Shown here in pieces: positions 1 to 49,200 of a stretch of DNA of 64,000 nucleotides. Position numbers and translations under genes: made by a program. The DNA is from Bolinopsis microptera (taxonomy: Eukaryota > Ctenophora > Tentaculata > Lobata > Bolinopsidae). The stretch covers positions 6,348,483 through 6,412,482 of the forward strand of contig NC_087077.1 of the NCBI RefSeq assembly GCF_026151205.1, written 5' to 3'. The notes beneath the pieces were generated by a model. That model was not told where the DNA came from. It made no database searches and saw only the letters and a program-made list of their open reading frames with translations. How positions within the stretch are numbered: the first letter of the stretch is position 1; each line of letters starts with the position of its first letter.

Positions 1-2490
1 TGACAAAAATTGATTCTGGTGAAGAACAACTGAAAGATGTTAATCCTTATTCACCAAATCCTGATCATCATTGGAGTCGAATATCTGGAAAATCTGATAA
101 AAAAGTGATTGAACTTCAGTATTGCAACTATTTTGAAAGCTTTCACAGTGGATTGAACTTCTTTGCTGAAAGTGATCTGGGTGAAATCTTTGAAGACAGA
201 ATTCGCTATCAAATAGAAAAAAGTGACATATTCAGTGTGAGTCAAAATTGTATTGAAAGTAAATTTTTGTTCATTGGCAGTAATTTGTGGCCTGTTTAAA
301 ATTGAATCTCCAAAAATCTCAATAATCCTTATTTTACTGGTGAAACCTCTACCATCCAGGGATTTGTCAGCATCTATGATGCAAACACAGGGTATTCTGG
401 TCTTCTTGCAGGGTTACTACCTCTTCTTGATGATGCATTTGGCAGAAAACCTAAAATGAACTTTGGAGTTGGAGCAGAAAAGCCAAGCATTTTTGAACTT
501 GAAGCTGTGACGAAGGGATCTGTTTGCTCATTTCTGAATTGGTGCAGCTTTAAAGGTAGTAATGTTGTCCTTATTTAAAGAAATGTTATGATATGCCTTA
601 TATAGCTACTAGCTGACTAGTTTGACTGGCGTGCAAATTTGATAATTAACTTCAATTGCAGATGTTTTTAGAGGATTACTTTGTCAAGACACTGACTATC
701 ACACTAGTGCTGTTTTGTCTTTATTCTTTCAACAAGTGCTACGAATTCCTCAAAAGGGCACCGAATTCAAGGATTTAACTACTTTCTTATCACCTCTCTC
801 AAGGAATATCTTCACATCAAATTTAGGTTAGTTAGTTACTCAAATAGTTACTCAAATTTCCAATCAAATAAATGCAGCTTAGGATAAATAGGACCACTTT
901 TAAAGTTCAATTTTTTAATTTTTTAAATCATCCTTTCCTTTTAACATCCTATAATTTATTTAAGTCCTTTATTTAAAGCTACTAATCTTAACGTCATTAA
1001 AGGTGTCCCATTTGATGATCCAGATGATAGAGGTTTATCAACGTTGTTCAGTTCACAATTCTTAGCTAAGAACATTACACCTCTCTCATTGTTCTGTAAG
1101 CAGGTATGTTGGGAGATGTGTTGAGAAATTAGTTTATTATTTAAAGAACGTTTATTCTTTTTTTTACAAAACTGACAAAGTTCACTTAAAAAATTCTGAT
1201 AACACTCTCCCAGATGTCCCTGCCACTCCACTATACCTATATGTCTAGCTGTGGAGTGTCCGGTATTCCAAATACCCACACATTCTTCTCTACCCTCTCC
1301 CAGCTGACCTCCACTGAGCAAGTGTTCGGAAGCACTACTCGCTACTGTTACACACCACAATCTCTACCGCTACACGCTTACTATCCACAGTTCTTTAACG
1401 ATAAAATCCTTTCCAATGGTAGGTAACCTTAGTCACTAGGTTGGGGGAGGGTAGGTAACCTTAGTAACTAGGTTGGAGGAGGGAGGGTAGGTAACCTTAG
1501 TAACTAGGTTGGGGGAGGGTAGGTAACCTTAGTAACTATGTTGGGGGAGGGTAGGTAACCTTAGTAGCTAGGTTGGGGGTGAGGGTAGGTAACCTTAGTA
1601 ACTAGGTTGGGGGAGGGAGGGTAGGTAACTAGGTTGGGGGAGGGAGGGTAGGTAACCTAAGTAACTAGGTTGGGGGAGGGTAGGTAACCTTAGTAACTAG
1701 GTTGGGGGAGGGTAGGTAACCTTAGTAGCTAGGTTGGGGGTGAGGGTAGGTAACCTTAGTAACTAGGTTGGGGGAGGGAGGGTAGGTAACTAGGTTGGGG
1801 GAGGGAGGGTAGGTAACCTAAGTAACTAGGTTGGGGGAGGGTAGGTAACCTTAGTAACTAGGTTGGGGGAGGGTAGGTAACCTTAGTAACTATGTTGGGG
1901 AGGCCGGAGGGTAGGTAACCTAAGTAACTAGGTTGGGGGGGGGGGGGGTGGGTAGGTTTATTGTTTCATCTGGTAGTATTTTAAGATGATTTTCATCTAA
2001 CTCTTAAATTGTATTATTCGTGTTGTTGCTCATGATTTAATCGTCTCTGAATTGCACTAGGACGCTTGCGAGCACCACACCAGAAAGTCAGATCTCAGCC
2101 AGTCAAGGAAATTCCTGTAGTATCTCTACTTCAAAACAATCAGGAGCCTCTACAGCTTATCGCTCAGGTAAACTGTATTTACAGAGTGCTATAATCATTG
2201 CAAAGCCCATCTTCGATTGTAAGATAAAAGATTTCGGATTTATTTATAATTCCTAAATATAAATATATATTATAAATATTTCTTCAGAGTTTAAAAAGCG
2301 ACCATAAGTAAGTAACACTACTTATGATAGTGATTAGTGCCATTATAATTAGTAACTTGTTCAGGTTTTATCAACTTCTGTTAAAGTGAGTGAAAGTCCG
2401 GAGCTCCTTACAGCTGGAATACTGCAAGATGATGTGTCCAATATCAGGCAGACTCTCAATGAACTCGCTGATAATTACTCTTTAAACTGA
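1..2490 (+). CDS. MSTO1: Misato homologue (MSTO1), 3' part, 7 exons
   Basis: Tubulin/FtsZ-related protein of the misato family, known in animals for roles in mitochondrial distribution and fusion. The window opens inside the gene. I assemble exons 3-236, 360-555, 662-826, 979-1103, 1214-1418, 2061-2167 and 2365-2490; all junctions are GT-AG and phases match throughout, giving about 385 residues ending at TGA 2488-2490. Family matches seen by eye include the segment EDRIRYQIEKSDIF followed by SIYDANTGYSGLLAG (human: glycine-rich segment after LEDRLHFYVEECD), the block DYHTSAVLSL, and the C-terminal block ending in a DDV-x(6)-LNEL pattern. Human MSTO1 has about 570 residues, so roughly 180 N-terminal residues lie upstream of the window. 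Intron 5 is filled by a minisatellite that starts at its 5' splice site. Family assignment is firm; the exact first visible codon is arbitrary because the exon is cut. Confidence 0.9.
1419..1957. repeat. Minisatellite in MSTO1 intron 5, seeded at the 5' splice site
   Basis: Around 15 imperfect copies of a 31-45 bp unit containing GGTAGGTAACCTTAGTAACT and a GGTTGGGGGAGG block. The authentic donor of exon 5 (exon end AATG, intron GTAGGTAACC) is the first GTAGGTAACC of the array, so every unit carries a donor-like site. The array ends in a poly-G run at about 1936-1950. Confidence 0.9.
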
Positions 2491-8882: not shown

Positions 8883-11380
8883 ATGACAATACCGGTTCAA
8901 CATATTGATGAAGATAAACTGTACACAGACCTTGGATATCGCTACCAATATCTTTGTGACTTTATTGGAATAACTGAAGAGGATATCACACTCATACATG
9001 GTAAGAATCGAGGAATCTTACAACTTCCACATTCACAACTTATCTCTCCCCCTATCCTCCCTTCCCGTCTCCCCCTCCCTCCTCCCCCTCCCTCCTCTCA
9101 TTCCGTCTCCCCCTCCCCCTCCCCCTCCCCCTCCCCCTTCCCCTCCCCCTCCCCCTCCCTCCTCCCCCTCCCTCCTCTTCATCCCGTCTCCCCCTCCCCC
9201 TCCCCCTCCCCCTCCCCCTCCCCCTCCCCCTCCCCCTCCCCCTCCCCCTCCCCCTCCCCCTCCCCCTCCCCCTCCCCCTCCCCCTCCCCCTCCCCCTCCC
9301 CCTCCCCCTCCCCCTCCCCCTCCCCCTCCCCCTCCCCCTCCCCCTCCCCCTCCCCCTCCCCCTCCCCCTCCCCCTCCCCCTCCCCCTTCCATCCTCTTTC
9401 TCCCCTCCCTCTTACCCCTATCCTCCCCTCCCGTCTCCCCTCCCCCTCCCCCTCCCCACTTTCTATCTACTCCACAATTGACTCAGGCTCAGCAGCTGTG
9501 CTAGGTCCTAAGGTGGAAGGATTGGTGGATGCTGTTTACGACAAACTATTCGCTTTTAGCTCTACAAAGAAGGTATATAGTATATATATTATTATATATA
9601 ATAGTAGCTGTGGTGTGGTGTGGTGTGGTGTGGTGTGGTGTGGTGTGGTGTGGTGTGGTGTGGTGTGGTGTGGTGTGGTGTGGTGTGGTGTGGTGTGGTG
9701 TGGTGTGGTGTGGTGTGGTGTGGTGTGGTGTGGTGTGGTGTGGTGTGGTGTGGTGTGGTGTGGTGTGGTAGTCTGTGTACAGTACAGTACAGTACAGTAC
9801 AGTACAGTACAGTACAGTACAGTACAGTACAGTACAGTACAGTACAGTACAGTACAGTACAGTACAGTACAGTACAGTACAGTACAGTACAGTACAGTAC
9901 AGTACAGATTCTGGTACTTATTTAATGACGTGATAAATTCCCAGATTTTCTTTAAAGAGAGATCAAAGTACGATGCACCGTCCACAGAAGAATCGTTGGA
10001 TAACTACGATTTGAACAAGCCTCAGATAGGAATGAGGAAATCATCCCTTAAAAGATTCATTGTAAGGTCAGTCCTGTTTTGGTAAATATTTGCTGACCGA
10101 ATCACTATATTTCTTGTAACTCTGTCTTTTCAAACTGTCGAGCTCAACCAAACGTAAACTCAGGGACAAAATTGGTTGCTGAGGTGAATGTAGTGAACAA
10201 GCCTCACTAATATGTTACCAGGTTGCTGAGGTTAATGTAGTGAAGAAGTCTCACTAATATGTTACCAGGTTGCTGAGGTTAATGTAGTGAAGAAGCCCCA
10301 CTAATATGTTACCAGGTTGCTGAGGTTAATGTAGTGAAGAAGCCCCACTAATATGTTACCAGGTTGCTTAGGTTAATGTAGTGAAGAAGCCTCACTAATA
10401 TGTTACCAGGTTGCTGAGGTTAATGTAGTGAAAAATCTCACTAATATGTTACCAGGTTGCTGAGGTTAATGTAATGAAGAAACCCCACTAATATGTTACC
10501 AGGTTGCTGAGGTTAATGTAGGAAGCCTCACTAATATGTTACCAGGTTGCTGAGGTTAATGTAATGAAGAAGCCCCACTAACATGTTACCAGGTTGCTGA
10601 GGTTAATGTAATGAAGAAACCCCACTAATATGTTACCAGGTTGCTGAGGTTAATGTAGTGAAAAAGCCCCACTAATATGTTACCAGGTTGCTGAGGTTAA
10701 TGTAATGAAGAAGCCCCACTAATATGTTACCAGGTTGCTGAGGTTAATGTAATGAAGAAACCCCACTAATATGTTACCAGGTTGCTGAGGTTAATGTAAT
10801 GAAGAAGCCCCACTAACATGTTACCAGGTTGCTGAGGTTAATGTAGTGAAGAAGCCCCACTAATATATTACCACTTTACCAGGTTGGTTACGAAGCCTTA
10901 TGATGGAGACATGCTAGCTGAGCTGGACCGTATGGGTAGGATACACACCCCCAAGGGAGGGAGTACCTCCATTAACGTGGAGCTTATTCACATGCAGGCT
11001 CTACTAGCTTATCTACAGGACGCACTCATTTCCACACTCTTCACCTACAAGAACTCTTGTGAAGAAGGCAAGAAACTTAATATGAACAAACTTTGGAGTG
11101 AACAAAGCAGACACTACAATAAACTGACTCCAATTTACTTGAGACCCTTTCTAATTCTTATTATTACCGACTGTGTGTTTCAGGTTCTGAAGAGTTTGAT
11201 GCGGAGGGGACAGTGCGCGCGTTCTGTAAGGTGCTAGCTGTTCAGAACCAGTTCATCTGCCGCTGGTACGAGGACCCTGCCAGTAGAGTTAACAGTCCTA
11301 CTAGGTCTACCTTTATACCACTGCTAGCTATTACTGGTGCTCTGACTGCTGCTATTACTTACCTTGCTGTATCCAAATAG
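8883..11380 (+). CDS. Protoglobin-domain protein with C-terminal membrane anchor
   Basis: Five exons, 8883-9000, 9487-9572, 9945-10066, 10883-11067 and 11184-11380, phases consistent, about 235 residues. The order of motifs follows the protoglobin family, particularly the form I know from fungi: DLGYRYQYLCDFIGITEEDI (near residue 17), LVDAVYDKLFAF, KPQIGMRKSSLKRFIVR, LVTKPYD, then LDRMGRIHTP with His130 in the position of the proximal haem ligand, then the helix NVELIHMQALLAYLQDALI and VRAFCKVLAVQNQFICRWYE. The last 25 residues contain FIPLLAITGALTAAITYLAV followed by VSK, a hydrophobic segment typical of a tail anchor, which would place the globin domain in the cytosol on a membrane. Protoglobins bind O2, CO and NO in archaea; a haem role here is inferred. 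Intron 4 begins with GC instead of GT (GCAAGA at 11068). Start chosen at the only ATG before the domain. Introns hold four separate tandem arrays. Confidence 0.85.
9031..9460. repeat. CCCCCT hexanucleotide array
   Basis: About 60 copies of CCCCCT with scattered CCCTCCT variants, filling intron 1 of the protoglobin gene. It creates long Pro or Ser-Pro ORFs on either strand that are not genes. Confidence 0.95.
9610..9906. repeat. Two adjacent pentanucleotide arrays, GGTGT and CAGTA
   Basis: About 31 copies of GGTGT (9612-9768) switch, after ten bases of TAGTCTGTGT, to about 25 copies of ACAGT (9779-9906). Both lie in intron 2 of the protoglobin gene. Confidence 0.95.
10160..10882. repeat. Minisatellite carrying the 3' splice site of protoglobin exon 4
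   Basis: About 15 copies of a unit near 47-49 bp (GTTGCTGAGGTTAATGTAGT, GAAGAAGCCCCACTAATATG, TTACCAG). Each unit ends in TTACCAG followed by GTTG, the same bases that form the authentic acceptor and first exon bases at 10879-10886 (TTTACCAG then GTTGGTTACG). Confidence 0.9.
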
Positions 11381-12372: not shown

Positions 12373-17717
<5,345 letters not shown>

Positions 17718-29400: not shown

Positions 29401-29686
29401 TCCGAACAGATCTGTTTTCTGTTTCCCCCTACCCAGCCTGGTTAACAGAAAGATTCGAGTTGTTCTACTTTGTGTTCCAGCCCTCCGACAATATGAGTAT
29501 TCAAATTAGTGTCCAGAGCAATAAGAAGGTAACTACTACTACTAAATAACTAACAAACTAACAAACTAACAAACTAACAAACTAACAAACTAACAAACTA
29601 ACAAACTAACAAACTAACAAACTAACAAACTAACGAACTAACAAACTAACGAACTAACAAACTAACAAACTAACAAACTAACTAAA

Positions 29687-29780
<94 letters not shown>

Positions 29781-31893
29781 CAGGATCTTGTACCGGACGA
29801 CTTTCTCCCCGGTCTCTCGTCTCGTCTCTATCTGTGGAGACAGTGTGCTATAGCAGATACCCGCAAACACCAGGCTAGGGAGAGCGGAGGTTTTCACCGG
29901 GCCGTGTCAGGACTTGTCATTATTGAGTTTGTCCGCGCTATGGACGCTAGGTAAAACTATGTTACTTATCGGCGTCGGTTTCTTTTTCTATTTTTTTCCA
30001 TGTAAATTATAAAAAATCTACTTCAGTTAGTTACTAATCGGTAATCCACTCCCTTCCCCCCAGGGAAGTGATAGTTACTATAACTTATCCACTCCCCTCC
30101 TCCAGGGAATTGATAGTTACTAATCCACTCCCTTCCCCCCAGGGAATTGATAGTTACTAATCCATTCCCTTCCCCCCAGGGAAGTGATAGTAACTAATCC
30201 ACTCCCTTCCCTCCAGGGAATTGATAGTTACTAATCCACTCCCTTCCCTCCAGGGAATTGATAGTTACTAATCCACTCCCTTCCCCCCAGGGAAGTGATA
30301 GTTACTAATCCACTCCCTTCCCTCCAGGGAAGTGATAGTTACTAATCCACTCCCTTCCCCCCCAGGGAATTGATAGTTACTAATCCACTCCCTTCCCCCC
30401 AGGGAATTGATAGTTACTAATCCACTCCCTTCCCCCCAGGGAATTGATAGTTACTAATCCACTCCCTTCCCCCCCCCCCCCAGGGAAGTGATAGTTACTA
30501 ATCCACTCCCTTCCCCCCAGGGAAGTAATAGTTACTAATCCACTCCCTTCCCCCCCCCCCCAGGGAATTGATAGTTACTAATCCACTCCCTTCCCCCAGG
30601 GAAATGATAGTTACTAATCCACTCCCTTCCCCCTCAGGGAAGTGATAGTTACTGAGAGTGTGGTGCAAGCTGCTCGACATAAGATTGTTATTAGTTTCCC
30701 TGACTTCTCTCACGAGGCCCAGGTAATGTTAATTAGGTACCTTTCTGATTAGTTATCTGATTTTAATGCAAATCTTTTTTAACACGTGACATCAGTTACT
30801 TTACCACGTGACATCAGTTACTTTACCTTGTGCCATCAGTTACTTTACCACGTGACATCAGTTACTTTACCACGTGCCATCAGTTACTTTACCACGTGAC
30901 ATCAGTTACTTTACCACGTGACATCAGTAAGTTGGTTTCTAGATATTCAAATGTGGCGATAGTAAGGATCAGCGGAGATCGTCGCTTTCGAACATTATGG
31001 GCTCCTTTAGGCAGTTGGGCACCAGGATTTACTTTGACAACGACTGACAACTACTACTTTATAACGTGAGATTAACGCTTTTTCACTTTAGTTTGTGTTG
31101 TTGAAAAACAAAAATGATATTTTGTCTTAGAAAAATAGTTGATTAATTTGTCACAGCATTCTACCACTATGCACTACTCTCCTTGTATCACGTGGTGACC
31201 CCCACTGTCGCTTCACTATAGTGTAGAGTTTCGACGATACAGGGGGAGCCGCGCACTCGTGCGCGGCGGGTCATACAACGTATGACAATACTCTCCCTTA
31301 TAAAGATGAAATCATGCTCTCCATATCTTGTGTTCTTGGCTAGTATATATGAAACATTTGACACGGAGTTGAGGAGTGAGCTATGTGCCTCGCCGGGCTA
31401 AAGTAGTGAATGTCCTTGCTGTACGGCAAGTTAAACAAGGAACTGAAACTACTAGGTTCCGCGCGTACAGGCTCAACTCTACACCCATGTCAATATGTTC
31501 ATATGTAAGCCTCTTGATTATTTAATAACTAATTCTAATCATCGAGAAAACTCTTTTTCATACAGATTCCCGTGTAGGTGTTCAGAAGTAGACCAAGAAA
31601 CAGGTCCCCCCCCCCCCAACTATATAGACCCTATCCCGTGTAGGTGTTCAGAAGTAGACCAAGAAACAGGTCCCCCCCCCCAACTATATAGACCCTATCC
31701 CGTGTAGGTGTTCAGAAGTAGACCAAGAAACAAGTCCCTCTTCTCCTCCTTGCTGTGCGGAGGCTGCTCAACTTCTCGGGAAGATGAGTTCAGTGAGTTT
31801 GATGTGACGGAGTCAGACCAGTTCGCAGTTCCTTCCTCCTTCAGAACACTAGACAGTAGTGCTAGGAGTAGTCGCTACTCTGACTATTACTAG
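23444..31893 (+). CDS. Unrecognised 14-exon protein, about 651 residues
   Basis: I do not recognise this protein. Exons 23444-23583, 23685-23768, 24271-24380, 24537-24649, 25334-25396, 26670-26763, about 28044-28250, 28324-28483, 28705-28852, 28998-29222, 29355-29528, 29784-29950, 30638-30722 and 31708-31893; phases agree at every junction, which supports one gene. The least certain joins are around exon 7, where the acceptor (28043) and donor (28250) were picked by phase; a second gene starting at ATG 28051 is possible. Visible features: an acidic helical N-terminus (MDPSYFAAALEDLSETLKPF), an Asp-Ser repeat (DSDSDSDSDSD) in exon 7, a hydrophobic Cys/Phe-rich stretch in exon 9 (FCVSFIRVCKFWCLKVFL), a conserved-looking basic/aromatic block (YYIRGNYVGKKFKPPYIADV) in exon 10, and a Ser-rich tail ending SSRYSDYY. 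No signal peptide. Four of its exon boundaries and its stop codon are copied into tandem arrays. Confidence 0.75.
24650..25240 (+). repeat. 35-bp minisatellite carrying the exon 4 donor
   Basis: About 17 copies of CTGAGGTAAAGTAGAGTTGA plus GACACAGTTTCACTC. The exon 4 end and donor (CCCCTGAG then GTAAAG at 24642-24655) is the first copy, so each unit contains CTGAG/GTAAAG, a usable-looking 5' splice site. Confidence 0.95.
25665..26669. repeat. 9/18-bp GTTAACCTTGTAAACATT array
   Basis: About 110 nine-base units alternating AACCTTGTT/AACATTGTT types, filling intron 5. The last unit is mutated from CTTGTAAAC to CTTGTAAG, which supplies the AG acceptor of exon 6 at 26668-26669. It is open in several frames on both strands because 9 is a multiple of 3; the resulting 366- and 295-residue ORFs are not genes. 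Confidence 0.95.
27545..28030. repeat. 14-bp minisatellite ATTTGTAATCACAG
   Basis: About 34 copies of ATTTGTAATCACAG, very uniform, ending directly at the start of exon 7. Each unit ends in CACAG, acceptor-like. Confidence 0.95.
28472..28570 (+). repeat. Duplicated exon 8 donor with poly-G
   Basis: GTTACAG/GTAAATCAGGAGGG (28477-28495, the real donor) is repeated as GTTACAGGTAAATCAAGAGG at about 28530, each copy followed by a G run of 9-21 bases. Confidence 0.85.
29548..29780. repeat. AACTAACA / CTAA array before exon 12
   Basis: Copies of AACTAACA then CTAA tetramers fill the intron and run into the acceptor CTACAG at 29778-29783. The CTAAC units resemble branch-point sequences. Confidence 0.95.
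30040..30640 (+). repeat. 37-bp minisatellite carrying the exon 13 acceptor
   Basis: About 16 copies of a unit made of a pyrimidine tract (CCACTCCCTTCCCCCC), CAG, and GGAAGTGATAGTTACT or GGAATTGATAGTTACT. The authentic exon 13 starts GGAAGTGATAGTTACTGAG at 30638, so each unit contains a full 3' splice site plus the first 16 exon bases. Confidence 0.95.
30795..30930. repeat. 22-bp minisatellite with CACGTG
   Basis: Seven copies of ACATCAGTTACTTTACCACG plus TG, each with a CACGTG E-box palindrome at the junction. Confidence 0.9.
31565..31730 (+). repeat. Triplicated exon 14 acceptor
   Basis: CCCGTGTAG followed by GTGTTCAGAAGTAGACCAAG occurs three times (AG ends at 31577, 31643 and 31707), separated by C runs. 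Only the third, at 31708, continues into the open coding exon; the earlier ones shift the frame. Confidence 0.9.
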
Positions 31894-32012
31894 ACAGTAG
31901 TGCTGGGAGTAGTCGCTACTCTGACTATTATTAGACAGTAGTGCTAGGAGTAGTCGCTACTCTGACTATTACTAGACAGTAGTGCTAGGAGTAGTCGCTA
32001 CTCTGACTATTA
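31846..32012 (+). repeat. 42-bp tandem repeat spanning the stop codon
   Basis: The last 13 codons and the TAG stop (31891-31893) recur three more times after the stop (TAGACAGTAGTGCTAGGAGT plus AGTCGCTACTCTGACTATTA). The period is 42 bp, so each copy keeps the frame and its own stop. Confidence 0.9.
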
Positions 32013-35195: not shown

Positions 35196-36654
35196 CGATC
35201 TATATAGTAAGCGCAGCCTTCTAAATGCAATTCATGAAACTTTATACATTAATATCTCTTTGCGCGCTACGTTTCAGCCATAAATTTGGTCAGAATTGTT
35301 GAGAATAATCTAAAAACGTGATTTTGGGTGATTATTTGATCTCCAACTTTCACTTAAAAATGAATACAGTAGGTAGTTTATGGTAGGTTTTACTTAGTTT
35401 GTTCATGATATGAACTGTAATTGAGTACCAGTAAGCCCCGGTCCCCTCGGTGTTCTATAATGGATATACATGTAGGGGCCATCGAAAGTCGCACAGAATG
35501 ATCCAGGTTCATGGAATAAACAAAAATGAATGTTCTCCTAAAAGTGCTCAGAATGGCCCAACATTGGTCGGAAAATGTTTGTGTTGATCCACTCCAGCCA
35601 AGTCTAGCGTATAACTTGCTACATCACGCACCCCTCCAATCTCCATAGCTTAAATCTTGTTCAAGTTCGCCAGGTCCCAAAATAGAAAAATGAAATGTTA
35701 ACTTTTATCTGAAAGTATAATGTAAAACATAGCAGACAGTCTCACAAGTTGCTCTAGTAGTTCTTAAATTCAATAAATAGGGTAAAAATGCAGACCCCCG
35801 CTAATTGAGTTCTACTTCTTTTAGTGGTTTCTAAATCATAACGAAATCGTGTTAAATTAAAAATATCCTCAATATAGACATTCCGACGATTCAGCTAAAT
35901 GGTAATAAGCAATGCCGCACAGTGTTCAGTTCAAACTCAAAGTTCAATAATTCGCTTAGCTCTCTTTCTAATAAGTCTATCAATGAACTGCTATCGTGAG
36001 AATATATCCATTGTCCACCAACGAAATCGTACCTGTTTTGATAAAGTTGTAGCGATTATAATGAAACAAAAACAAAACATGTAAGCTATTTTAGATTAAT
36101 TTGAATTATTGAAGACTCACAAAATGAAGGATATTTTAAGATTTGAGCTTTCCGAGACTCAAATTTCACTACTTTGACTGAATATTACTTGAATGACCTA
36201 TCAATGAGTTCACTGGGTATGGCACGAGACACAATTGAGGTACTGAAAGTTGGATTACTAAAGAAAGCTCTGATAAACGGAAATTCATCAGAATACAATA
36301 CATTTTGGAAGATTTTTGAATAGAAGCTTTTCTGTCGTTTCCTTCACCGAAATTTCACAGTTTTGACTAAATTTTTGACCAGTAATCAATCAGTAAGGTC
36401 AGTGTGTGTGACAAGAGTCACCATCAAGATACTGGAAGCTAATTTAATTAATAAAAAACCGTTTAGGTCCAGATATAGGGGAGGAGAGCCATATCTGCTG
36501 ATTAGGGGTCTGTTTATTAATAACATAAGTGCAGTCCTCTCTTATCTTCAAAGTTAACACTTCCCCATTATATTCAACCTTGTAAAATACTTAATTATCA
36601 ATAAGTTCGAAGTAACTGGTTACAGTACAGACTACAGATGATCCAGTAGTGGTA

Positions 36655-37196
36655 AACTTTGCAAACTCACGTCAAATACAGTAGTTTAGTGGTAAACTTT
36701 GCAAACTCACGTCAAATACAGTAGTTTAGTGCTAAACTTTGCAAACTCACGTCAAATACAGTAGTTTAGTGGTAAACTTTGCAAACTCACGTCAAATACA
36801 GTAGTTTAGTGGTAAACTTTGCAAACTCACGTCAAATACAGTAGTTTAGTGGTAAACTTTGCAAACTCACGTCAAATACAGTAGTTTAGTGCTAAACTTT
36901 GCAAACTCACGTCAAATACAGTAGTTTAGTGCTAAACTTTGCAAACTCACGTCAAATACAGTAGTTTAGTGGTAAACTTTGCAAACTCACGTCAAATACA
37001 GTAGTTTAGTGGTAAACTTTGCAAACTCACGTCAAATACAGTAGTTTAGTGGTAAACTTTGCAAACTCACGTCAAATACAGTAGTTTAGTGCTAAACTTT
37101 GCAAACTCACGTCAAATACAGTAGTTTAGTGGTAAACTTTGCAAACTCGCGTCAAATACAGTAGTTTAGTGCTAAACTTTGCAAACTCACGTCAAA
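36655..37196 (-). repeat. 40-bp minisatellite carrying a minus-strand donor
   Basis: About 13.5 copies of GTCAAATACAGTAGTTTAGT plus GGTAAACTTTGCAAACTCAC. On the minus strand each unit reads GTATTTGAC/GTGAGTTTGC, identical to the exon end and donor of the minus-strand exon at 37191-37350 (ATATTTGAC/GTGAGTTTGC). Confidence 0.95.
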
Positions 37197-37350
37197 TATT
37201 TCCGGCACGTCAGGAATGAAATCAGGCAGTTCCTCTAACGCCTCAGTTAATGTTTCTAACGTCTCAGAAACAATATTATCAAACCCTGGTACTTGCATTG
37301 TTAACTGTCTTGTTAAAAGCGAGTAGTTGTGGACGTGGTTTACATTCAAT
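37191..37350 (-). CDS. Orphan coding exon, product unknown
   Basis: Good acceptor (TTATTTTCAG at 37351-37360, minus strand) and donor (GAC/GTGAGT), open in one frame for 53 codons with biased, non-repetitive content (LTMQVPGFDNIVSETLETLT then an acidic ELPDFIPDVPEIFD). I could not find its partner exons in the flanking sequence, and its phase does not fit TBC1D20. It could belong to a gene whose other exons I missed, or be a relic. An in-exon ATG at 37295-37297 could also be a start. Confidence 0.45.
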
Positions 37351-38342: not shown

Positions 38343-41300
38343 TCACATTTGAAAACGTCCCGAATAGACAGATAAAGCGAAGGCAGCAAAACCCACAAGA
38401 AAACTGGAGGAAATGGCAATCCCGGCGGGAGTGTTAGCGTACTCCAACAGCTTCCCTCCCCAGTTCCTGCTCCAGTCCAGATAACCAAACCTGGGTACCT
38501 GTAGGTTGCAGTGTTACAACAAGATAACCAAACTATTCACTTTGTCTAAACTATACACTGTGTATATACACTGTGTCTAAACTATACACTGTGTCTATAC
38601 TATACACTGTGTCTATACTATACACTGTGTCTATACTATACACGGTGTCTATACTATACACTGTGTCTATACTATACACTGTGTCTATACTATACACTGT
38701 GTATATACTATACACTGTGTCTATATTATACACTGTGTCTATACTATACACTGTGTATATACTATACACTGTGTATATACTATACACTGTGTCTATACTA
38801 TGCACTGTGTCTATACTATACACTGTGTCTATATTATATGGTACCTGGAGCATTATTTGGTGTTGTTTTATCGGCAGTGTCTTTATTATTTCTGGAGGGA
38901 ATTCGTCCAACAATTCCACGGCGTTCTTTATCTGCAATGTAACATGTTACATATATACAAGTTATCTGCAATACAAGATCTAAACTAACAATCTTTTAAT
39001 TAACCTCGATTGTAAATGTCCGTGATACAGAGGAGCAGAGGACACACTTTTCTAATAGTATAATTATATATAATTAATTATATAATATAAACAGAATACT
39101 AATTAAATGTGTATAAGAAGAAGTTGTTACCAGAAGGTCGAATGGAAGATGTTGAGGCAGGTTGTGTAGGACCTGGTGCACCGAACTTAGCTCACATTCT
39201 ACTTCCAAAATCCGATGTTTTCTATAAAGTACTATAGCAGCAGACAAGTAGACCGGCATGAGGGGTGGGGATGTTATAAATACGTCGTACAACCTGAACA
39301 TGGTGCAGTTAGCATGTGAATTGTACGGTACAATTCGTTATCACAATTCACTAATATATTATATTAATATCACTAATAACTATTTAACATACCTGTAAAT
39401 AGTGTCCTCCGAATTTACCACATAAGCAAACCAAGTTATGATCCAGGATAAACTAAACATAGTTCCAGCTTCAGACTGCAGGATAAAGTCTGCTAACTCC
39501 ACACTTTTCTGTAAAAACCAGGAGTTAAGGGGGCCGGCGCGAAGGGGGGGGGGGGGGGGGGGGGGGGGGTGGGGGGGGGGGGGGGGGCGGTCCTTAGAAC
39601 CAGGAGTTAAGGGGGCCGGGGCCCAGGTCAAGATTCATGCGAGATTGCGAGCTAGACTCATCGCACAAAATTTGTAAATAAATGAGAAAACAGAAAAAGT
39701 TTAACTTAAAAGTTGAGGGACACAATAATTAGGAACTTAACGTGTATTTTATACACTTAACGTGTATTTTATCACTTGTTTATAGCGTGAAAACTTCGAC
39801 GTAACGCGCGGGAGATTCGGCGAGATTTTGGTGAGTTTCCCATAAATCTCGCACTTAAACTCGTGATGACGCGAGTTTAAGTGCGAGTCTAAGGTATGCT
39901 TTTTTCAGCATTATTGGTGGCCTAGTGGTTAGAGCACCCACCCTCTGCGCAGAAGGTTCAGGGTTCGAATCACAGTGTCACCTAGTTTATGGAGTAGCTA
40001 AGGATCCATTGAATCTATGCGATCTCCCTGGTTTACTCAGCCGAATGATAGGAAACTTAATTTACGGTTAAATGAGAAGGGGTACCTGTTAAAAATCAAG
40101 AAACTTCCTAGGATACGTATACCCCGTCAGTGCATACTGTAAACAATAAACAAAGAGCTATTGGCTACTAACTATTATCAACTATTTACTTGGTCATTGG
40201 CCTTTTGCAGAAGGTTACTTTTCAATGAAAAATATTCTGGAAATTCTCGGGAATCTTGGAGTAGTTTTTCGAATCAAGCAATTAGCATGAACGCGCGAAT
40301 ATATATACACAAATATTATAGCACCTATATATTCCGTGGCGCGATGAGTAGGCCTATTGGTGCCGACAGCTGATGGTGGTTCGAAACCAGTCCAATACCG
40401 TTTTATTGGTACTTATTTTCGCAATGAAAAATTTGGCGATAGAGATAATCTCAGAATGAGAAAGGGCGCAAGGAGGAAGGATCTGGAACAATTTTTGAAA
40501 CACGTGTTTTAACTTTTTAAGGAATGAATTCTAGTACTGGTATTTGGACTACAATACAAGCGGCGAATTTCGTGCAGTTATACTGCAGTTTGACAGGGTA
40601 TGCTGAACGAGGCCAAAAATCCCCCCCCCCCCCCCCCCGTGACACGTGACAATCGTACTTTCAAATGCCCAAAATCCAGTCTCACTGCACTTTCTCAGCA
40701 ATCTTGATAGGGGGGCCGGGGGGGGGGGGGGGTCCTTAGAAACAGGAGTTAAGGGGGCCGGGGGGGGGGGTCGAGGTCCTTAGAACCAGGAGTTCAGGGG
40801 GCCGGCGCGGGGGGGGGGGGGGGGGGGGGGTCCTTAGAACCAGGAGTTAAGGGGGCCGGGGGGGGGGGGGGGGGGGTTGTCCTTAGAACCAGGAGTTAAG
40901 GGGGCCGGGGGGGGGGGGGGGGGGGGTTGTCCTTAGAACAAGGAGTTCAGACTGCAGGATAAAGTCTGCTAACTCCACACTTTTCTGTAAAAGGAGATGA
41001 AATAAATAAACATTGATATAGTACAGGATATTATATAGCTAGACTATACGTTATAATGGACTGGGTATAATGCAGCTCTAATATACCTGGCTAACAAGTG
41101 GAACAATAAGCTTCATCTGCTGAGAGGTCTCGTCAAGGTTCTCCCTGATGTGGGAGGCGAGGTGCGCGCGACACAAGCACGACATTAGAGCTGCTGCGCG
41201 TCGCTCACCCAGCACATACAACATCGTCAGACTCACGTCGTGATAGCCCTGCAATGTAATATAGTGTATACATGTCCTGCAATGTATAGTGTATACATGT

Positions 41301-42056
41301 CCTGCAATGTATATTGTATAGTGTATACATGTCCTGCAATGTCAGGTTAATTTCAAGCATGATTACCTGGTGCTAAACAAGTATTGTAAACAATCAAAAT
41401 TGACCGCAGTTTCCCCCCTCTGCAGTATTACTGCACCTGGTAATAATGTTGATTAGGAGCCTCAGCCAAGGATTTGATAATCACATTCCTGAGTCTGTTC
41501 TTAATGGCAAGTATTTGTTGGGATAGTGTACCGGTCTTTATCCTGGAGTTGCACCTGTGCACATCCAGACACACTTGCGTGTAATCTCTGAACTCGGTAA
41601 TGTCACACTCTGTTACACATGTCTTCTCATCTACCCCCAAGTATTGTAGCCACAACACTTTTCTGTACTCGTTGCTAAGGAGACCACCCTCTGTCATGGC
41701 TAGAGATCTTATTTCTTCTCGCGAGATATCCTGACCTGACAAATAGCGGGGATGTGTAGTTACTTATGGACCATTGCCATCCTCACGCAATTAAATATCT
41801 ATGGACTGTTAACTGGAAAAAACAATAACGCTGCCTTAATGTTACAATAAAAGCTGCTGTTTTATATCCAGATAAAAGTGTCACCTCTTTTCAAGAGAGC
41901 GCTGATGTGAGCAGCTTTCTCCTTCCTCCACTCCGCCGAGTCCTGCTCAGACCTCCTTCTCTTTCTCACGTGACTAATCTGCCCACGTGGGCGCGCTAAG
42001 TCACGTGGTTTAGAGGTCACGTGATCAGCTATGTAACCACGTGACTTTGTAGACAT
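38343..42056 (-). CDS. TBC1D20: TBC1 domain family member 20 (Rab GTPase-activating protein)
   Basis: ER-membrane GAP for Rab1/Rab18-type GTPases. Exons, 5' to 3': 41885-42056, 41437-41735, 41087-41248, 39393-39508, 39131-39293, 38845-38931 and 38343-38498; all phases match; 384 residues (human 403). The TBC domain shows TEGGLLSNEYRKVLWLQYLG, the DxxR motif (VCLDVHR) and the YQG motif split across exons 2/3 (HYYQ-GYHD), both needed for dual-finger catalysis, then GTMFSLSWIITWFAYV and LMPVYLSAAIVLYRKH. The last exon ends in a hydrophobic segment (AGIAISSSFLVGFAAFALSV) a few residues from the stop, the tail anchor seen in the vertebrate protein. Exon 1 is basic and contains five CACGTG hexamers. 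The acceptor of exon 3 is repeated four times upstream, and a fragment of exon 4 with its acceptor is duplicated 1.4 kb upstream. Confidence 0.95.
38540..38840. repeat. 18-bp minisatellite ACACTGTGTCTATACTAT
   Basis: About 16 copies of ACACTGTGTCTATACTAT in the last intron of TBC1D20. It is open in several frames and creates two overlapping ORFs of about 130 residues that are not genes. Confidence 0.95.
39530..39620. repeat. Poly-G block next to TBC1D20 exon 4
   Basis: AACCAGGAGTTAAGGGGGCC followed by about 45 G with one T, then TCCTTAGAACCAGGAGTTAA again. Same family as 40700-40945 and 42705-42826. Confidence 0.9.
39916..40090 (+). mobile_element. tRNA-derived SINE
   Basis: The head has a polymerase III A box (TGGCCTAGTGGTTAGAGCA) and B box (GGTTCGAATCA) with tRNA spacing. 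The body contains AGCTAAGGATCC, GGTTTACTCAGCCGAAT and GGTTAAATGAGAAG, all shared with the SINE at 46836-47105. Lies in TBC1D20 intron 3, antisense to the gene. Confidence 0.75.
40700..40945. repeat. Poly-G minisatellite, TCCTTAGAACCAGGAGTTAA unit
   Basis: Five units of TCCTTAGAACCAGGAGTTAA, GGGGGCCG and a G run of 10-24. It directly abuts the duplicated exon 4 fragment at 40946-40992. Confidence 0.9.
40946..40992 (-). other. Truncated copy of TBC1D20 exon 4 start with acceptor
   Basis: 47 bases identical to 39470-39516: the 3' splice site (TTTTACAG) and the first 39 bases of exon 4, located upstream of exon 4 in the same intron and the same orientation. The copy has no 5' splice site of its own. 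Confidence 0.9.
41249..41345 (-). repeat. Repeated acceptor of TBC1D20 exon 3
   Basis: On the minus strand CATTGCAGGACATGTATACA is repeated, and the last CATTGCAG is the real acceptor at 41249-41256. Four CATTGCAG copies in about 100 bases. Confidence 0.85.
41961..42045. promoter_or_regulatory. Cluster of five CACGTG E-boxes in TBC1D20 exon 1
   Basis: CACGTG at 41967, 41984, 42002, 42018 and 42038, three in the context TCACGTG. They sit inside the first coding exon, directly after the start codon. CACGTG is the core recognised by bHLH-Zip factors (Myc/Max, USF, TFEB class). Regulatory function is inference. Confidence 0.45.
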
Positions 42057-42704
42057 CAACTAACGCTGTAACCCGGTAACACTGTCATGTTGTCATGGTA
42101 ACGCTGTCATGGTTAGCGTCATAGCAGATCTATGGAAATGTACTTGAAGTGCTGTTCTTAATATTTGAACGACGAGATTTGCTACATTATATTGTCCTAA
42201 TATTATAACAATAATATTATATTTCTCCAGATTTAATGCATGAGATTAATGATGTACAGATTAAGACTGAGTTGTTTTTATAAATGGTGATAAATATTAC
42301 TTTTATACAAATTAAAGATCCAGCAGAATACAAAATGTACACACAATAATGTGGACTGTCAAAACCACACCAAATCAGCAAAATGCCAGGTGTTTACACA
42401 AAGGCCCCATAATATCAGACTGTTTTTATCGATTATACCACTGTTATCTTTTCGAAAGAAGCGATTATACCATAGACGAATATCACAATTCACAATATTA
42501 GCGAAATATATACAAATGTTACAAAACCCAGTGAAAAAGAAGGAGAGTAAAGAAACATTGTTACCATAACAACTGTTACCTTGTCAACGGTAAAGCATTA
42601 AATATCACCCTCAGTGAATTATTATATTCTATCTCAGTATAAAATCTGATGGTCTCTAAGTATATTCTTCTACCAGAACTGTTCATATTATGTACCATGG
42701 ATTA

Positions 42705-42826
42705 TGGGGGGGGGGGGGGGGGGGGGGGTCCTTAAAACCAGGAGTTAAAGGGGGCGGGGGGGGTCCTTAGAACCAGGCGTTAAGGGGGCCGGGGGGGGGG
42801 AGGGGTCCTTAGAACCAGAAGTTAAG
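42705..42826. repeat. Third poly-G / TCCTTAGAACCAGG block
   Basis: Three units of the same family as 39530-39620 and 40700-40945, with G runs of 7-22. It directly abuts the 28-bp-arm hairpin. Confidence 0.9.
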
Positions 42827-42900: not shown

Positions 42901-43293
42901 CAGCAACTCATCATCGTACCACTGCAAACAGCTAGCATAATATTATGTATAATTAATAATGAATTTAGGAATTATTATCGTAATATATTTTATCGGCAAT
43001 ATCTAACTTTAATTTGCAATGCATCTATTTAAAATCCGTTAGCAAATATGATTCATATTATAATTGTTATAATAAAATGTATGTCAAAATGCCACAGTTC
43101 ACACTTCCAAACCCAAAAATATCTAACAGTCATCACTACTGTAACAATCTAACTACTTATTTATAATTTTAAATTACTCTTAGTAACACCTGTGTTAAAT
43201 TACTCTTAGTAACACCTATAAACACTTAAGTAACACCTTTCTTCAATATATTTATATGGAATCAAGATTCGTTAAACAGTGTGTTATTACAGA

Positions 43294-46200
43294 CTACTCT
43301 GGTCGTCTGCGCGGCAGTGTGTTTGCTTTTCTGATGAAGTTGCGCTGGAAGGGGCGTGCACTTTCGTCGTCACTATTCACTGGTGTGGTACTAGGCGAGT
43401 TTGGTGCACTAGGCGACGTGTGCGCGCTAGGCGAAATGTGCGTGCTAGGTGATCTCTGCACGCGACTTGGACCTGTATTTGTAAATATGTGAATATCAGG
43501 GACTAACAATATATCTAATATCAGTAATAAGGCAATAAATGTTAAATGAGAAATGTATTTGAACAATAACAGTGCTCGTTTATACTTATACACCTCGGGG
43601 CTAGGTTATTACTTACTAGGAAATGATAACCCCACGTCTACTGGCAGAGAGTTTCTTCCTTTTCTTATCATCTCATAATCATGGTGTAGAGGACCTTGCA
43701 TTCTGAAGTATAACAATGTTAAATTGTTACTGCCACAATCCAATAATAGATTCTTTTTGTATGTCTATATGTATGTCTGTGCGACCGCCCACGTGCAAAT
43801 TTGATGAGAAATAAGAAGTTACATAGTAACCATAGTGACGAGGGTTGATACTCGCACGTGCAAAGATTTACAAGCGACGTTTTGATCGGTTTTTATTTGA
43901 TCGGATTTTATTTGATCGGTTTTTGTTTGATCGGTTTTATTTGATCGGTTTTTATTTGATCGGTTTTGAACGGTTTTATTGTGGTCATTATTATGTCTGT
44001 ATTTCTGTACGAACAACCGGGATAACAATAATTTTACACAGAATACATTACAACAATGCGACTCATAAATAATACTCCAATCCGGATTTTACATGAAATA
44101 CAGACATGTATATGTGTATTTATTATATAATATATATAAAGATTAATTAAAGATTAACTGTCTAGCCTATATAACTGTTGATTTGTAAGTTTTAAAAGCT
44201 CACTTTAGCGTAAACAGGTAGGTACTAACATTTATAAACTTGTTAATTGAGTATAATTTACACGTCGTACATACTAACATTTATAGTGCAGTGTTTGTCA
44301 CGTGACACGCACACAGACACGTGACCACAGTAAAACTACACGAGTCTACAGAAGTCACATGATCAATTAGCGCACACCAGTGAACAGTTTTCCCATGACA
44401 ACGGAATGCCAATCAACTTGTTTTGAAAATAATAAAGTGACGTTAGAAGTGGTGTAAGTTTCAAAACACACGAATGTATCTATGAAATAGAATGTATCTA
44501 TGAAATAGAATGTATCTATGAAATAGCGGGATATTGACAGCGAGTCTATCAGTTTATAACCTGGGTCATCCTTTGATTTGCCACTAATTGACTAATTGTC
44601 ACTAATTGTCACTAATTGTCAGTAATCTATACACACGTAACATTTATTACACAATAACACTTGCACTAGATCCAGCTTCATGGCTATAATAAAGCTTGTG
44701 TACAGTATACACTGTGCACTGTACACTGTACATTGTACACTTGCACTGTACACTTGCACTGTACACTGTACACTTTTTGTTTTGACGAATTTAATTATAA
44801 TTAAATTCATACAAATTCTAGAATACAGATGTGGGGGTAATACTTTGGGAATTTTTAATTGTGGGAGAAATTGAAGACAAATTTAATGTCAAGATGAGCC
44901 CCTCTTTAAGCAAAATGAAAGGTTAAACTGAGATCAGAGCTAATCCAAACTAATTTGTACAAATTGTACATGATTTAAACTAACGTATTATCGTCATCAC
45001 TGTGGTCAGTAATACTGAGAGAGGAACTGAAGGGAGAGGTGGAGGAGGAGGTAGAGAGACAGGCCTGTAGGTCACAGTGGTTCATCAGTCGTAGTAACTC
45101 AACCTGACACATAATACAGTTAATTATCAATCAATTAACCCTGTTACTTTGTTATCTAGCGGCTAGCAACCTTGTTACCCAGCAACCTTGTTACCTAGCA
45201 ACCTTGTTACCTAGCAACCTTGTTACCCATCAACCTTGTTACCTAGCAACCCTGTTAACTAGCAACCTTGTTACCTAGCAACCTTGTTACCTAGCAACCC
45301 GTTTACCTAGCAATTGTTTTCATGTTACCTGAGTAACGCCTGTTTGACCAGTGGAGCTATCAGTACTGTACAGGTCTTTAGGTGCTCTGTCAAACGCAGT
45401 TGTTAGATCCCACATCTGTATCGAACCATCATCGTGACCTGAGGTCACATTGTCACCCGATTAGCAATGACAAATAGCACTGGAATAGTTTGTGATTTTC
45501 CTTGACTTAGTTGAGTTTATTGATAGGAGATGACTCTAATTAACTAACTTACTAACCAACTAATTAACTAATTAACTAATTAACTAATTAACTAATTAAC
45601 CGACCTGTAAGAATGTATCGCCTCATCCTGGTTCTAGTAGAGCTGTCACACTCGTGTAGAGAGTGAGATGTAATGTTCGTACCGTCCACACTCCTTAGGG
45701 AACACAGTCTCTTCCCTGTACTCGCTACACAGATGAACATCTCATTACTCGTCTGTACCACCTAGTTAGACAGGGTCATTAGTAGCTAATTAGCTAATTA
45801 GTAAAATAACTAAATTTTATTGATTATCATGAATTTACGACGTGTATACATTCAGCAAGGGATTGTAATGAACACTAGAAATTATTTTGAAGTAAAAAAG
45901 GAAACTATACTTTTTGCATGAAGACAGCCCAGTCGTCCTTGTCCCCGTAAGGCCCGACCCCATTACTTGACATAGGAGAGTAGGGCTCGTCAAGCTCGAT
46001 CACGTTAAATGAGGCGAGGGGCGTGGAACTGGGCTGGGTGAGAATCCGCCCCCGGAACCTGCAGAGAAGGGAGGGAGTTACTACTCTTAAACAATAGACG
46101 TGGGGGGTCAGTACACATACGTTTGGGCTTGTTTCTCACTCGCTGAGTGCCCGATTGAAATAATCCATTGACTCGCTGAATACACTGTACCTGGTGACAG

Positions 46201-49200
46201 TCCAGCTCCTAACATGGTTACTCTCACTACACACGCTGATAAGATGGTTCTCACTCAGCATCACCCTGGTTACTGCCTCTCTGTGTACGTTAAACGTCTG
46301 GAGTACTTGAGGTCCTGTAGGAATGTGTATAACTGCATTAATTAGAACCACATATTCTCTTTGTGGGTGAGGGTCTACTGAAATAGACTTGAGTTTTCAC
46401 GGTTTTGTAGCCGAAAAACGGTCCTACCTAAACTCTAACCCCAACTCTAACCATAACTCTAACCCCAACTCTAACCATAACTCTAACCATAACTCTAACC
46501 CCAACTTTATCCATAACTCTAACCCCAACTCTAACCATAACTCTAACCCCAACTCTAACCATAACTCCAACCCCAACTCTAACACCAACTCTAACCATAA
46601 CTCTAACCATAACTCTAACCATAACCCCAACTCTAACCATAACTCTAACCATAACTCTAACCCCAACTCTAACCCCAACTCTAACCCCAACTCTAACCAT
46701 AACTCTAACCCCAACTCTAACCCCAACTCTAACCATAACTCTAACCCCAACTCTAACCATAACTCTAACTATAACTCTAACCATAACCCCAACTCCAACC
46801 ATAACTCTAACCATAGCTCTAACCCCAACTCTAACGGCCAGGTAGCGTAGTTGGTTAATCATCGGATTTGTAATCGTGAGATTGCGAGTTCGAAACCCAC
46901 TGCCTGCCTAGTCGTGGGGTGAGTGTCGTCGACATTCAGCTAAAGATCCTGAGTGGTCTATGCAGCCCCCCGGTCTACTCAGCCGAATATTCGAGAAATC
47001 GTGTGTGAGGGTTAAATGAGAAGCTGTCCATTGCAGCGAAGTCTCGGGCGAAGAAAGTATGGTACACACTACCTTAACCGTCACTGGCCTAATTAAATCC
47101 TTCGGCTTCCTGTAATTGGCTAGTTACACTTGTGTAACAATGTGGCTGTTGGAATACTCCGAAGTAAAATAAGTGTGAGATAAAAAAACCATAACTCTAA
47201 CCCCAACTCTAACCATAACTCTAACCCCAACTCTAACCATAACTCTAACCCCAACTCTAACCCCAACTCTAACCATAACTCTAACCCCAACTTTAACCAT
47301 AACTCTAACCATAACTCTAACCCCAACTCTAACCATAACTCTAACCCCAACTCTAACCATAACTCCAACCCAAACTCTAACACCAACTCTAACCATAACT
47401 CTAACCATAACCCCAACTCTAACCATAACTCTAACCATAACTCTAACCCCAACTCTAACCATAACTCTAACCCCAACTCTAACCATAACTCTAACCCCAA
47501 CTCTAACCATAACTCTAACCCCAACTCTAACCCCAACTCTAACCATAACTCTAACCCCAACTCTAACCATAACTCTAACCCCAACTCTAACCATAATTTA
47601 ACTCTAACCATAACTCTAATATCCCCAACTTACACTCATACAATTTCTGATACATTAATGTATAACTGGCGTATCTATAGATATCTGACTAAAGTGACAC
47701 AATTTGAATCTGTTGGGGATTGCGCCAGATTGCGATCAACATTGATGAGTTGTTGTTCGTTTGCAGCCACGTTTCTCCTTCTCTTGTTTTGTATTAAATA
47801 TCAATTATCAATTATATCATAATATCGATTATCGATCTTATGTCTTTAGTACTTACTAGTTACTACCCAGGGCAAAAATATACCAACTTTCTAAATTTAT
47901 AAAAACTATAATACAGAATCGTAAATTCCGTAAAACAACCGAAAGTGCGGATATCGCCGAATGGTGCAAACAAAGTTCTGTAACTGGTAAAAAGTGCGAT
48001 TCCGCACCTAAATGTTGCCCCTACCATGTCACGTGACCAAAAACGTTTTAAACTATAATTTCTCAGGGGCAGGGGAGTAGGAAGAGGGGGGGGCAGGGGG
48101 AGCAGCAGGGGTGTAGGAAGAGGGGGGGGGCAGGGGAAGCAGCAGGGGTGTAGGAAGAGGGGGGCAGGGGGAGCAGCAGGGAAGTAGGAAGAGGGGTGTA
48201 GGAAGAGGGGGGGCAGGGGGAGCAGCAGGGGTGTAGGAAGAGGGGGGGGCAGGGCAGGGGTGTAGGAAGAGGGGGCAGGGGAGCAGGGGTGTAGGAAGAG
48301 GGGGGGGGGGGGGGCAGGGGGAGCAGCAGGGCTGTAGGAAGAGGGGATGCACTACATATTTGTGAAATCCATTACATTAATATGAGAAACTTTTTACAGA
48401 TACTGTAGATAGATAACTTATTACTTTATTATTAAAACTGAAGTTTTTAGTGAAAACTGTGAGATGGTTACCTTGTCCGACAGTCTCAGGGTGCTGAAAT
48501 ATGATCCTAACCATTCCTCTGTTGGTTCCGTACGCTATCTCAATCCACTCCCCGCACTGCTGCCCTACACACTGCTTAGGGGTCAGGTACACACTGAGGG
48601 CGAGTGCTATTTAGGTGACAAATATAGCTGAGAGGAGGAGAGGGATTAAGTGACAAGAGAAGAGAGTGGGGGGGTGTTCTAGTAGCATAGCAATCTAGTG
48701 GGGGGGGGGGGGGGAGGGGGTGTTCTAGTAGCAACCTAGTGGGGGGGAGGGTGTCCTAGTATCAATCTAGTGGGGGGGGGGGGGTTCTAGTAGGCAATCT
48801 AGTGGGGGGGGGGGGGTGTTCTAGTAGTAATTTAGTGGGGGGGGGGGGTAGTATGTACCTGAAAGCAATCTAGTGGGAGAGCGGTAGTATGTACCTAGTG
48901 GGGGAGGGGTAGTATGAACCCCTCTAGTGGGGGAGGGGTAGTATGTACTATGTATCTAGTAGGGGAGGGGTAGCATGTACCCCTCTAGTGGGGGAGGGGT
49001 AGCATGTACCCCTCTAGTGGGGGAGGGGAAGTATGTAGTACGTAGTATGTAGTATGTAGTATGTAGTATGTAGTATGTGGTATGTGGTATGTAGTATGTA
49101 GTATGTAGTATGTACCTGATAGCAGTGATAGAGATTCCCTTGTTCCTCTCCGGATCACAGTATAGCTTACTGACCAACAAATCGTTATCTTTCATTCGGA

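What the first reader, a model, noticed from the sequence alone, without database searches (positions are those of the whole stretch)
1419..49115. Minisatellites seeded at exon-intron boundaries across the window
In at least ten independent places the tandem unit contains the authentic splice site next to the array, in register. Donors: MSTO1 exon 5, the 23.4-kb gene exons 4 and 8, the orphan minus exon, KCTD3-type exon 7, PPIE exon 5. Acceptors: protoglobin exon 4, PPIE exons 2 and 3, the 23.4-kb gene exons 13 and 14, TBC1D20 exon 3. Several units include 4-16 exon bases. Random intronic slippage would not favour junctions so consistently. Unit lengths (31-66 bp) and sequences differ, so this is a process acting at junctions and not one repeat family. 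Possible causes: repair of breaks at splice sites or R-loops, re-insertion of splicing by-products, or selection for redundant splice sites.
Basis: seen in the sequence. Interest (0 to 1): 0.92.

Follow-up and report, generated by a model that had tools for sequence, protein, structure and literature searches.

The report
Tandem repeats spanning splice junctions
In a comb jelly genome many short tandem repeats include a working exon-intron boundary; the same oddity is known from lancelets, the genes checked still splice at the copy beside the exon, and most of it looks like tolerated local DNA duplication and not a junction-specific machine.

Summary
The observation largely holds. Of 12 named junctions, 10 have a neighbouring repeat copy matching across the boundary, one is weak (KCTD3 exon 7), one fails (29784); I add three. 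Transcript-sized contigs encode my spliced KCTD3, PPIE and 23.4-kb models, so the copy beside the exon is used there. The organism is a ctenophore close to Mnemiopsis. In 163 homology-defined introns elsewhere in its 264.65-Mb genome, 10 of 60 arrays span a junction by at least 3 exon bases. Window plus sample: 17 of 100, against 10.2 expected if duplications start anywhere in an intron or across its ends (P 0.015). The excess vanishes if ancestral introns are capped at 200-300 bp. Exon share of the unit is consistent with uniform. So tolerance of junction-spanning duplication explains most cases; a 1.7-1.9-fold preference is possible, not shown. Lancelet 'mirages' are the same kind; the papers listed in my searches show no ctenophore case. 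New detail: a 24-bp word has only 3 exact copies in the genome, at two PPIE junctions, and a 29-bp word only 7 near-exact copies, at three places in or just upstream of TBC1D20, pointing to local templated copying.

The parts
1418..1947 (+). MSTO1-type exon 5 donor (exon ends 1418) at the head of a 32-bp array
   Evidence: gene name recalled, no Pfam hit
10174..10882 (+). 47-bp array ending near protoglobin exon 4 acceptor (exon starts 10883; TRF edge 9 bp short)
   Evidence: PF11563
12712..12801 (+). PPIE exon 2 acceptor (12774): 42-bp unit x2.1, exon bases included
   Evidence: a 293-aa relative fits use of the exon-side acceptor
15853..15930 (+). PPIE exon 3 acceptor (15925): 39-bp unit x2; holds two of the genome's three exact copies of the 24-bp core
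16839..16887 (+). PPIE exon 5 donor (exon ends 16846): 13-bp duplication with a 23-bp filler identical to the exon 3 unit 951-990 bp upstream
24640..25240 (+). 23.4-kb gene exon 4 donor (exon ends 24649): 35-bp unit x17, 10 exon bases
25662..26668 (+). 18-bp array ending 1 bp before exon 6 acceptor (26670); abuts, not in register
27544..28031 (+). 23.4-kb gene exon 7 acceptor (28026): 14-bp unit x35; not in the finding
28477..28551 (+). 23.4-kb gene exon 8 donor (exon ends 28483): 22-bp duplication plus 31-bp G-rich filler
29548..29778 (+).
31568..31738 (+). last exon acceptor (31708): 64-bp unit x2.7, about 31 exon bases; not in the finding
31848..32012 (+). 41-bp unit x4 over the last codons and stop codon of the same gene
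36647..37198 (-). orphan minus exon donor (exon 37350-37191): 40-bp unit x14, 8 exon bases
38532..38838 (-). 18-bp array 6 bp from TBC1D20 exon 6 donor (38845); abuts only
39589..42790 (+). 29-mer GGTCCTTAGAACCAGGAGTTAAGGGGGCC at three places: 39589, 40731-40906 (both TBC1D20 intron 3) and 42727-42790 (about 0.7 kb upstream of the TBC1D20 start codon); written on the + strand, the gene is on -
41260..41342 (-). 25-bp array reaching TBC1D20 exon 3 acceptor (41248; TRF edge 11 bp short)
45536..45600 (-). 8-bp array 4 bp from KCTD3 exon 11 donor (45605); abuts only
48709..49114 (-). arrays from KCTD3 exon 7 donor (49116); weak in-register evidence
54058..54106 (-). KCTD3 exon 5 acceptor (54066): 21-bp unit x2.3, 9 exon bases; not in the finding

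Best explanation
These are minisatellites begun by short tandem duplications that happen to cross an exon-intron boundary, the structure called 'mirage' in lancelets. Step 1 (inferred): a break or replication slip duplicates 20-80 bp, with or without microhomology, sometimes with a filler copied from nearby sequence in the same gene. Step 2 (shown for three genes at protein level): the duplication is harmless because splicing uses the copy that touches the exon. Step 3 (inferred from copy numbers of 2 to over 50): unequal exchange or slippage amplifies some of them. Junctions are not needed as a target: seeds lying anywhere in a short intron, ends included, give most of the observed cases; a preference of up to about twofold is not excluded.
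For: Exon share of the unit is spread over 0.03-0.86 and consistent with uniform (18 arrays, KS P 0.58). Donors and acceptors are hit alike (8 and 9). Young cases show the first step: 7 of 11 examined are plain tandem duplications, 4 carry a filler. Transcript-sized contigs (2,714, 2,101 and 961 bp; the genes span 13.8, 8.5 and 5.3 kb) encode the spliced KCTD3, 23.4-kb and PPIE products. The exon parts of four units look ancestral: relatives keep the residues without a gap there (EVxV and VFR; FVEFE; [11 protein letters not shown]), so the exon seeded the array and not the reverse. Array words recur locally: 21 of 159 arrays share an exact 18-mer 30-5000 bp away (1.15 Mb searched), 9 of 159 share one with other sampled loci (46.8 Mb searched).
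Against: With uncapped intron lengths both tests show an excess at junctions: 17 of 100 against 10.2; a TRF-free test gives 19 of 424 junctions duplicated against 9.9 expected. Array edges within -2 to +10 bp of a junction: 17 against 8.1; at 26-50 bp 7 against 14.7. Introns with more than 250 bp of non-array sequence: 12 spanning against 3.4. The ancestral intron length needed to remove the excess is assumed, not measured.
Confidence: 0.68

Rival explanations
1. A process acting at junctions: breaks, R-loops or template switching at the shared word CAG|GT make splice junctions duplication hot spots.
For: 1.7-1.9-fold excess of junction-spanning arrays; edges pile up within 25 bp of junctions and are thin at 26-50 bp. 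The PPIE exon 5 donor carries a filler whose only other exact copies in the genome are at the exon 3 acceptor of the same gene.
Against: Excess vanishes with ancestral introns capped at 200-300 bp, and spanning is at expectation in introns with under 250 bp of non-array sequence. Breakpoints spread over the unit. AGGT is not enriched in array units (45 of 197 against 38.9 in shuffles).
Confidence: 0.22
2. Selection keeps redundant splice sites near exons.
For: Pooled over 9 arrays, splice motif positions differ from the unit in 2.1% of sites, other positions in 4.8% (Fisher P 8e-5).
Against: Only 6 of 9 arrays show it; copies are not independent. Unit length is a multiple of 3 in 5 of 17 spanning arrays, as by chance. 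The proteins found use the exon-side copy.
Confidence: 0.05
3. Re-insertion of splicing by-products or introner-like mobile introns.
For: Some units hold both AG and GT; one 21-bp satellite is genome-wide.
Against: The PPIE core has no exact copy outside PPIE and the TBC1D20 29-mer none, within 3 mismatches, outside its 3.2-kb stretch; 9 of 159 arrays share 18-mers with other sampled loci; the traceable filler lacks its source's AG.
Confidence: 0.03
4. Misplaced exon boundaries make arrays look junctional.
For: Two exon edges of the 23.4-kb gene (exons 7 and 8) were first placed wrongly by me.
Against: 33 of 49 introns are now supported by proteins of transcript-sized contigs; PPIE and TBC1D20 models align to the human proteins.
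Confidence: 0.02

Closest known systems
'Mirages' of lancelets (Branchiostoma Adh3, globin BflGb6 and BflGb9, troponin C, PGBD5); PMC3087553 and PMC3902484, passages seen
   Same: Minisatellite-like tandem duplications spanning donors or acceptors, different units at each place, AG/GT in many copies, splicing undisturbed
   Different: Here a ctenophore; many genes at once (19 of 424 junctions against 9.9 expected); a null model; rare words shared between separate places of one locus. Length variation between haplotypes was shown there, not tested here
Intron gain by tandem duplication of AGGT (Rogers model, cited in PMC3087553; PMC4974935, title and abstract start in the search listing only)
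   Same: Tandem duplication carrying splice signals
   Different: Here existing introns are enlarged; no gained intron was shown
Introner elements (recalled)
   Same: Repeats that carry splice signals
   Different: Not dispersed: the two words tested are confined to one locus each
Templated insertions of polymerase-theta end joining, and tandem duplications from adjacent nicks (recalled; only listings seen)
   Same: Short duplication with a filler copied from nearby
   Different: The enzyme is not identified here

Membership tests
Mirage (lancelet junction minisatellite) | Tandem duplication spans the exon-intron boundary | tested here: met
   10 of 12 named junctions plus 3 new ones; 10 of 60 arrays in a genome sample
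Mirage (lancelet junction minisatellite) | Both 5' and 3' boundaries are affected, units differ in length and sequence | tested here: met
   8 donors and 9 acceptors among 17; units 11-64 bp
Mirage (lancelet junction minisatellite) | Regular splicing is not disturbed | tested here: met
   Transcript-sized contigs encode KCTD3, PPIE and the 23.4-kb product with exon-side sites; protein level only, three genes
Mirage (lancelet junction minisatellite) | Copy number varies between haplotypes or somatically | not testable with these tools
   No reads or second haplotype at hand
Introner element | Same element in introns of unrelated genes | tested here: not met
   PPIE core: 3 exact copies, all in PPIE (8 others have 3 mismatches); TBC1D20 29-mer: 7 copies within 3.2 kb; of 264.65 Mb
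Intron gain by AGGT duplication | A new intron lies between the duplicated AGGT copies | not tested
   Needs orthologous gene structures of other ctenophores

The most novel reading that the evidence does not exclude
Splice junctions of one gene exchange sequence: template switching anchored on the shared CAG|GT copies repeat units from one junction to another within a gene, making junctions the sites where intron length and minisatellites are renewed. PPIE (exon 3 acceptor to exon 5 donor, 951-990 bp apart) would be a direct trace.
Probability: 0.14. Interest if true: 0.75.

Novelty: new member of a known kind. Interest (0 to 1): 0.48.

Why it matters
It carries a structure known from a few lancelet genes to a ctenophore and to 19 of 424 tested junctions (4.5%, about 2.3% expected), and gives a null model against which a junction bias can be judged. 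Young two-copy cases let the seeding step be read directly. If a junction bias survives a genome-wide test, splice sites would be mutation hot spots that feed intron growth and possibly intron gain.

Tried and rejected
Tried: testing bias by TRF edges alone (depends on assumed intron length, kept with its sensitivity test); per-copy conservation of splice motifs, first with a fuzzy regex that only caught near-perfect copies (discarded) and then with wraparound alignment on 9 arrays (a tenth listed case was skipped for want of a unit). Myosin genes for a larger sample: found but not fetched. Cullin genes: profile covered too little, dropped before counting. Of 239 introns aligned in the sample, 163 were kept (no cullins; flanking exons with at least 8 matched codons and mean score 2); the splice matrices were trained on the 49 window introns. 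L028 was first taken as a private filler like PPIE; one search showed its 21-bp unit is a genome-wide satellite, so it is not counted as private. Not upheld: one repeat family for all arrays. Open: an X-box-like palindrome as common seed; a strict pattern is in 0 of 197 units, a loose one in 24 against 14.8 in shuffles, and GGTAAC in 18 against 4.0.
Full report
What the window is. The window lies in a 264.65-Mb assembly of 232 contigs at C6:6348483-6412482. The KCTD3 model's best match is a protein from a 2,714-bp contig (listed at 100% identity over 100% of the query; one residue differs on reading it), then Mnemiopsis leidyi at 90% and one unnamed protein at 70%; the other listed animal proteins are near 45-52%. 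Gene names: protoglobin PF11563, PPIE RRM and cyclophilin domains, KCTD3 BTB and WD-type matches, TBC1D20 RabGAP-TBC; PPIE and TBC1D20 align to the human chains.

Gene models. Six genes give 49 introns with open spliced frames. The 23.4-kb gene was checked against a 635-aa protein from a 2,101-bp contig: 621 of 635 columns identical, one 4-residue indel inside exon 7, none at a junction, after correcting exons 7 and 8. PPIE's relative from contigs of up to 961 bp has the same length of 293 residues at 99% identity (listing only). These contigs are shorter than the genes, so they should come from spliced RNA; that is an inference from length. In all, 14 + 13 + 6 = 33 of 49 introns have this support. 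PPIE exon 2 has two in-frame acceptors 42 bp apart; the relative's length fits use of the exon-side one.

The arrays. TRF gives 118 rows, merged to 70 arrays, 40 of them touching introns and covering 9,171 of 28,263 intron bases. Boundary matches are listed in the observation check: 10 of 12 named cases hold, one is weak, one fails, three are added. Eight window arrays have an edge between 10 bp inside the intron and 2 bp into the exon, among them MSTO1 exon 5, protoglobin exon 4 and KCTD3 exon 7 of the finding.

Is the junction favoured? Null: each array began as one duplicated unit of length u whose start is uniform over the intron's non-array sequence plus u, ends included. Junction-spanning arrays (3 or more exon bases): window 7 observed of 40, 4.6 expected, P 0.15. 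Independent sample: kinesin and CCT genes located by Pfam search, fetched, and spliced with a profile aligner that ignores repeats; 163 introns, 60 arrays, 10 spanning, 5.6 expected, P 0.038. Together 17 of 100 against 10.2, P 0.015. The aligner's splice matrices came from the window introns. Two near-identical gene pairs are in the sample; dropping one of each leaves 10 of 58 against 5.5, P 0.035. By non-array intron length: under 250 bp 5 against 6.8; 250-600 bp 5 against 1.75 (P 0.020); 600-1500 bp 4 against 0.98 (P 0.014); longer 3 against 0.64 (P 0.019). Long introns may have grown by transposons after the array was born, which would make the expectation too low; this is assumed. Capping the length at 200, 300, 400 or 600 bp gives 18.6, 15.3, 13.7 or 12.1 expected, P 0.72, 0.35, 0.19, 0.07. 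Counting arrays within 10 bp as well: 34 of 100 against 18.4 uncapped (P 0.00001), 26.9 at a 300-bp cap (P 0.055), 32.7 at 200 bp (P 0.42). A test without TRF asked how often a 16-mer centred on the junction has a copy within 400 bp in the intron, with intron positions that are leading copies as control: donors 10 of 212 against 4.9, acceptors 9 of 212 against 5.0; in introns up to 600 bp 6 of 169 against 1.9 and 1 of 169 against 3.0 (no P computed, control positions are clustered). So a bias of up to about twofold is possible but hangs on intron history.

How seeds form. Eleven cases, ten with two or three copies and one (TBC1D20 exon 3) slightly more, were dissected. Seven are direct duplications, overlapping by 1 to 11 bp of (near-)homology. 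Four carry a filler: PPIE exon 5 (13-bp duplication, 23-bp filler), 23.4-kb exon 8 (22 and 31 bp, G-rich, no local source found), TBC1D20 exon 3 (13 and 15 bp, its own unit), and L028 (83-bp duplication with 59 exon bases, 75-bp filler). The PPIE filler is exact in the exon 3 acceptor array upstream. Its 24-bp core has 3 exact matches in the whole genome, all in PPIE; 8 more matches have 3 mismatches, against 1 for the reversed control, so the core belongs to a loose motif family. The TBC1D20 29-mer has 7 matches with up to 3 mismatches, all within 3.2 kb: two places in intron 3 and one about 0.7 kb upstream of my start codon; 18-mers of these arrays, whose content I did not examine, also occur in L017 and L039. 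The L028 filler is a genome-wide 21-bp satellite (837 + 937 matches of a 40-mer), so its source is open. More broadly 21 of 159 arrays share an exact 18-mer with a place 30-5000 bp away and 9 of 159 with other loci, in 1.15 and 46.8 Mb searched; some local pairs are one array split in two or an inverted transposon pair. Local copying is therefore well supported; which repair enzyme does it is not known.

Direction and use. Relatives keep the exon residues coded by the units at 30638 (EVxV), 31708 (VFR), 54066 (VLIAV) and PPIE exon 2 (FVEFE) without a gap, so there exon sequence seeded the arrays. Unit length is a multiple of 3 in 5 of 17 spanning arrays. Splice motifs are better kept than the rest of the unit in 6 of 9 arrays (pooled 2.1% against 4.8% mismatches, Fisher P 8e-5; copies not independent). 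This is weak evidence for selection on spare sites at most.

Literature. [quoted passage not shown] PMC3902484 (one passage) adds troponin C and PGBD5. Searches, in the open-licence library only, listed no ctenophore case; I saw titles and abstract starts, and the lists were cut at 10-12 of 33 to 346 papers. PMC12221973 (passages) reports ctenophore loop anchors with a GC-rich motif; the passages seen say nothing of these arrays.

Verdict. Real, wider than the finding says, and the same kind as the lancelet mirages. The strong claim of a junction-directed process is not established.

Noticed in passing
L028:2390-3012 and 3365-3446; whole genome: A 21-bp X-box-like satellite unit (GTAGTGTAACTATGGTAACTA): 1,774 matches of a 40-mer with up to 3 mismatches; only the first hundred or so places are listed, many of them within 1 Mb of contig starts. 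The word GGTAAC is in 18 of 197 array units against 4.0 in shuffles.
   Followed up: partly
48380-48610 and 49936-50118: KCTD3 exon 8 and flanks are present twice on the minus strand beside a transposon-rich intron.
   Followed up: no
50599-53358: Two facing copies of a transposon-like reading frame inside KCTD3 intron 5.
   Followed up: no
15771-15852 and about 33600: A roughly 80-bp MITE-like insert with a 10-bp direct repeat (CTCTAGTTGT) splits one unit of the PPIE exon 3 array; a reversed relative lies at 33.6 kb. Read by eye.
   Followed up: no
39508 and 40985: Start of TBC1D20 exon 4 with its acceptor is duplicated about 1.5 kb upstream, the C-rich array between the copies.
   Followed up: partly
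23444-31893: The 23.4-kb gene had no Pfam hit; the weakest of its 5 listed relatives carries PF10421 (recalled as OAS1_C; E 4e-4), a faint hint of an OAS-like protein.
   Followed up: no
8883-11380: An animal gene with a full protoglobin domain (E 2.2e-31) and a hydrophobic C-terminal tail.
   Followed up: no
L011/L012, L014/L015, L043/L044: Very similar gene pairs about 40-120 kb apart on one contig, recent duplicates or assembly copies, differing in intron length.
   Followed up: no
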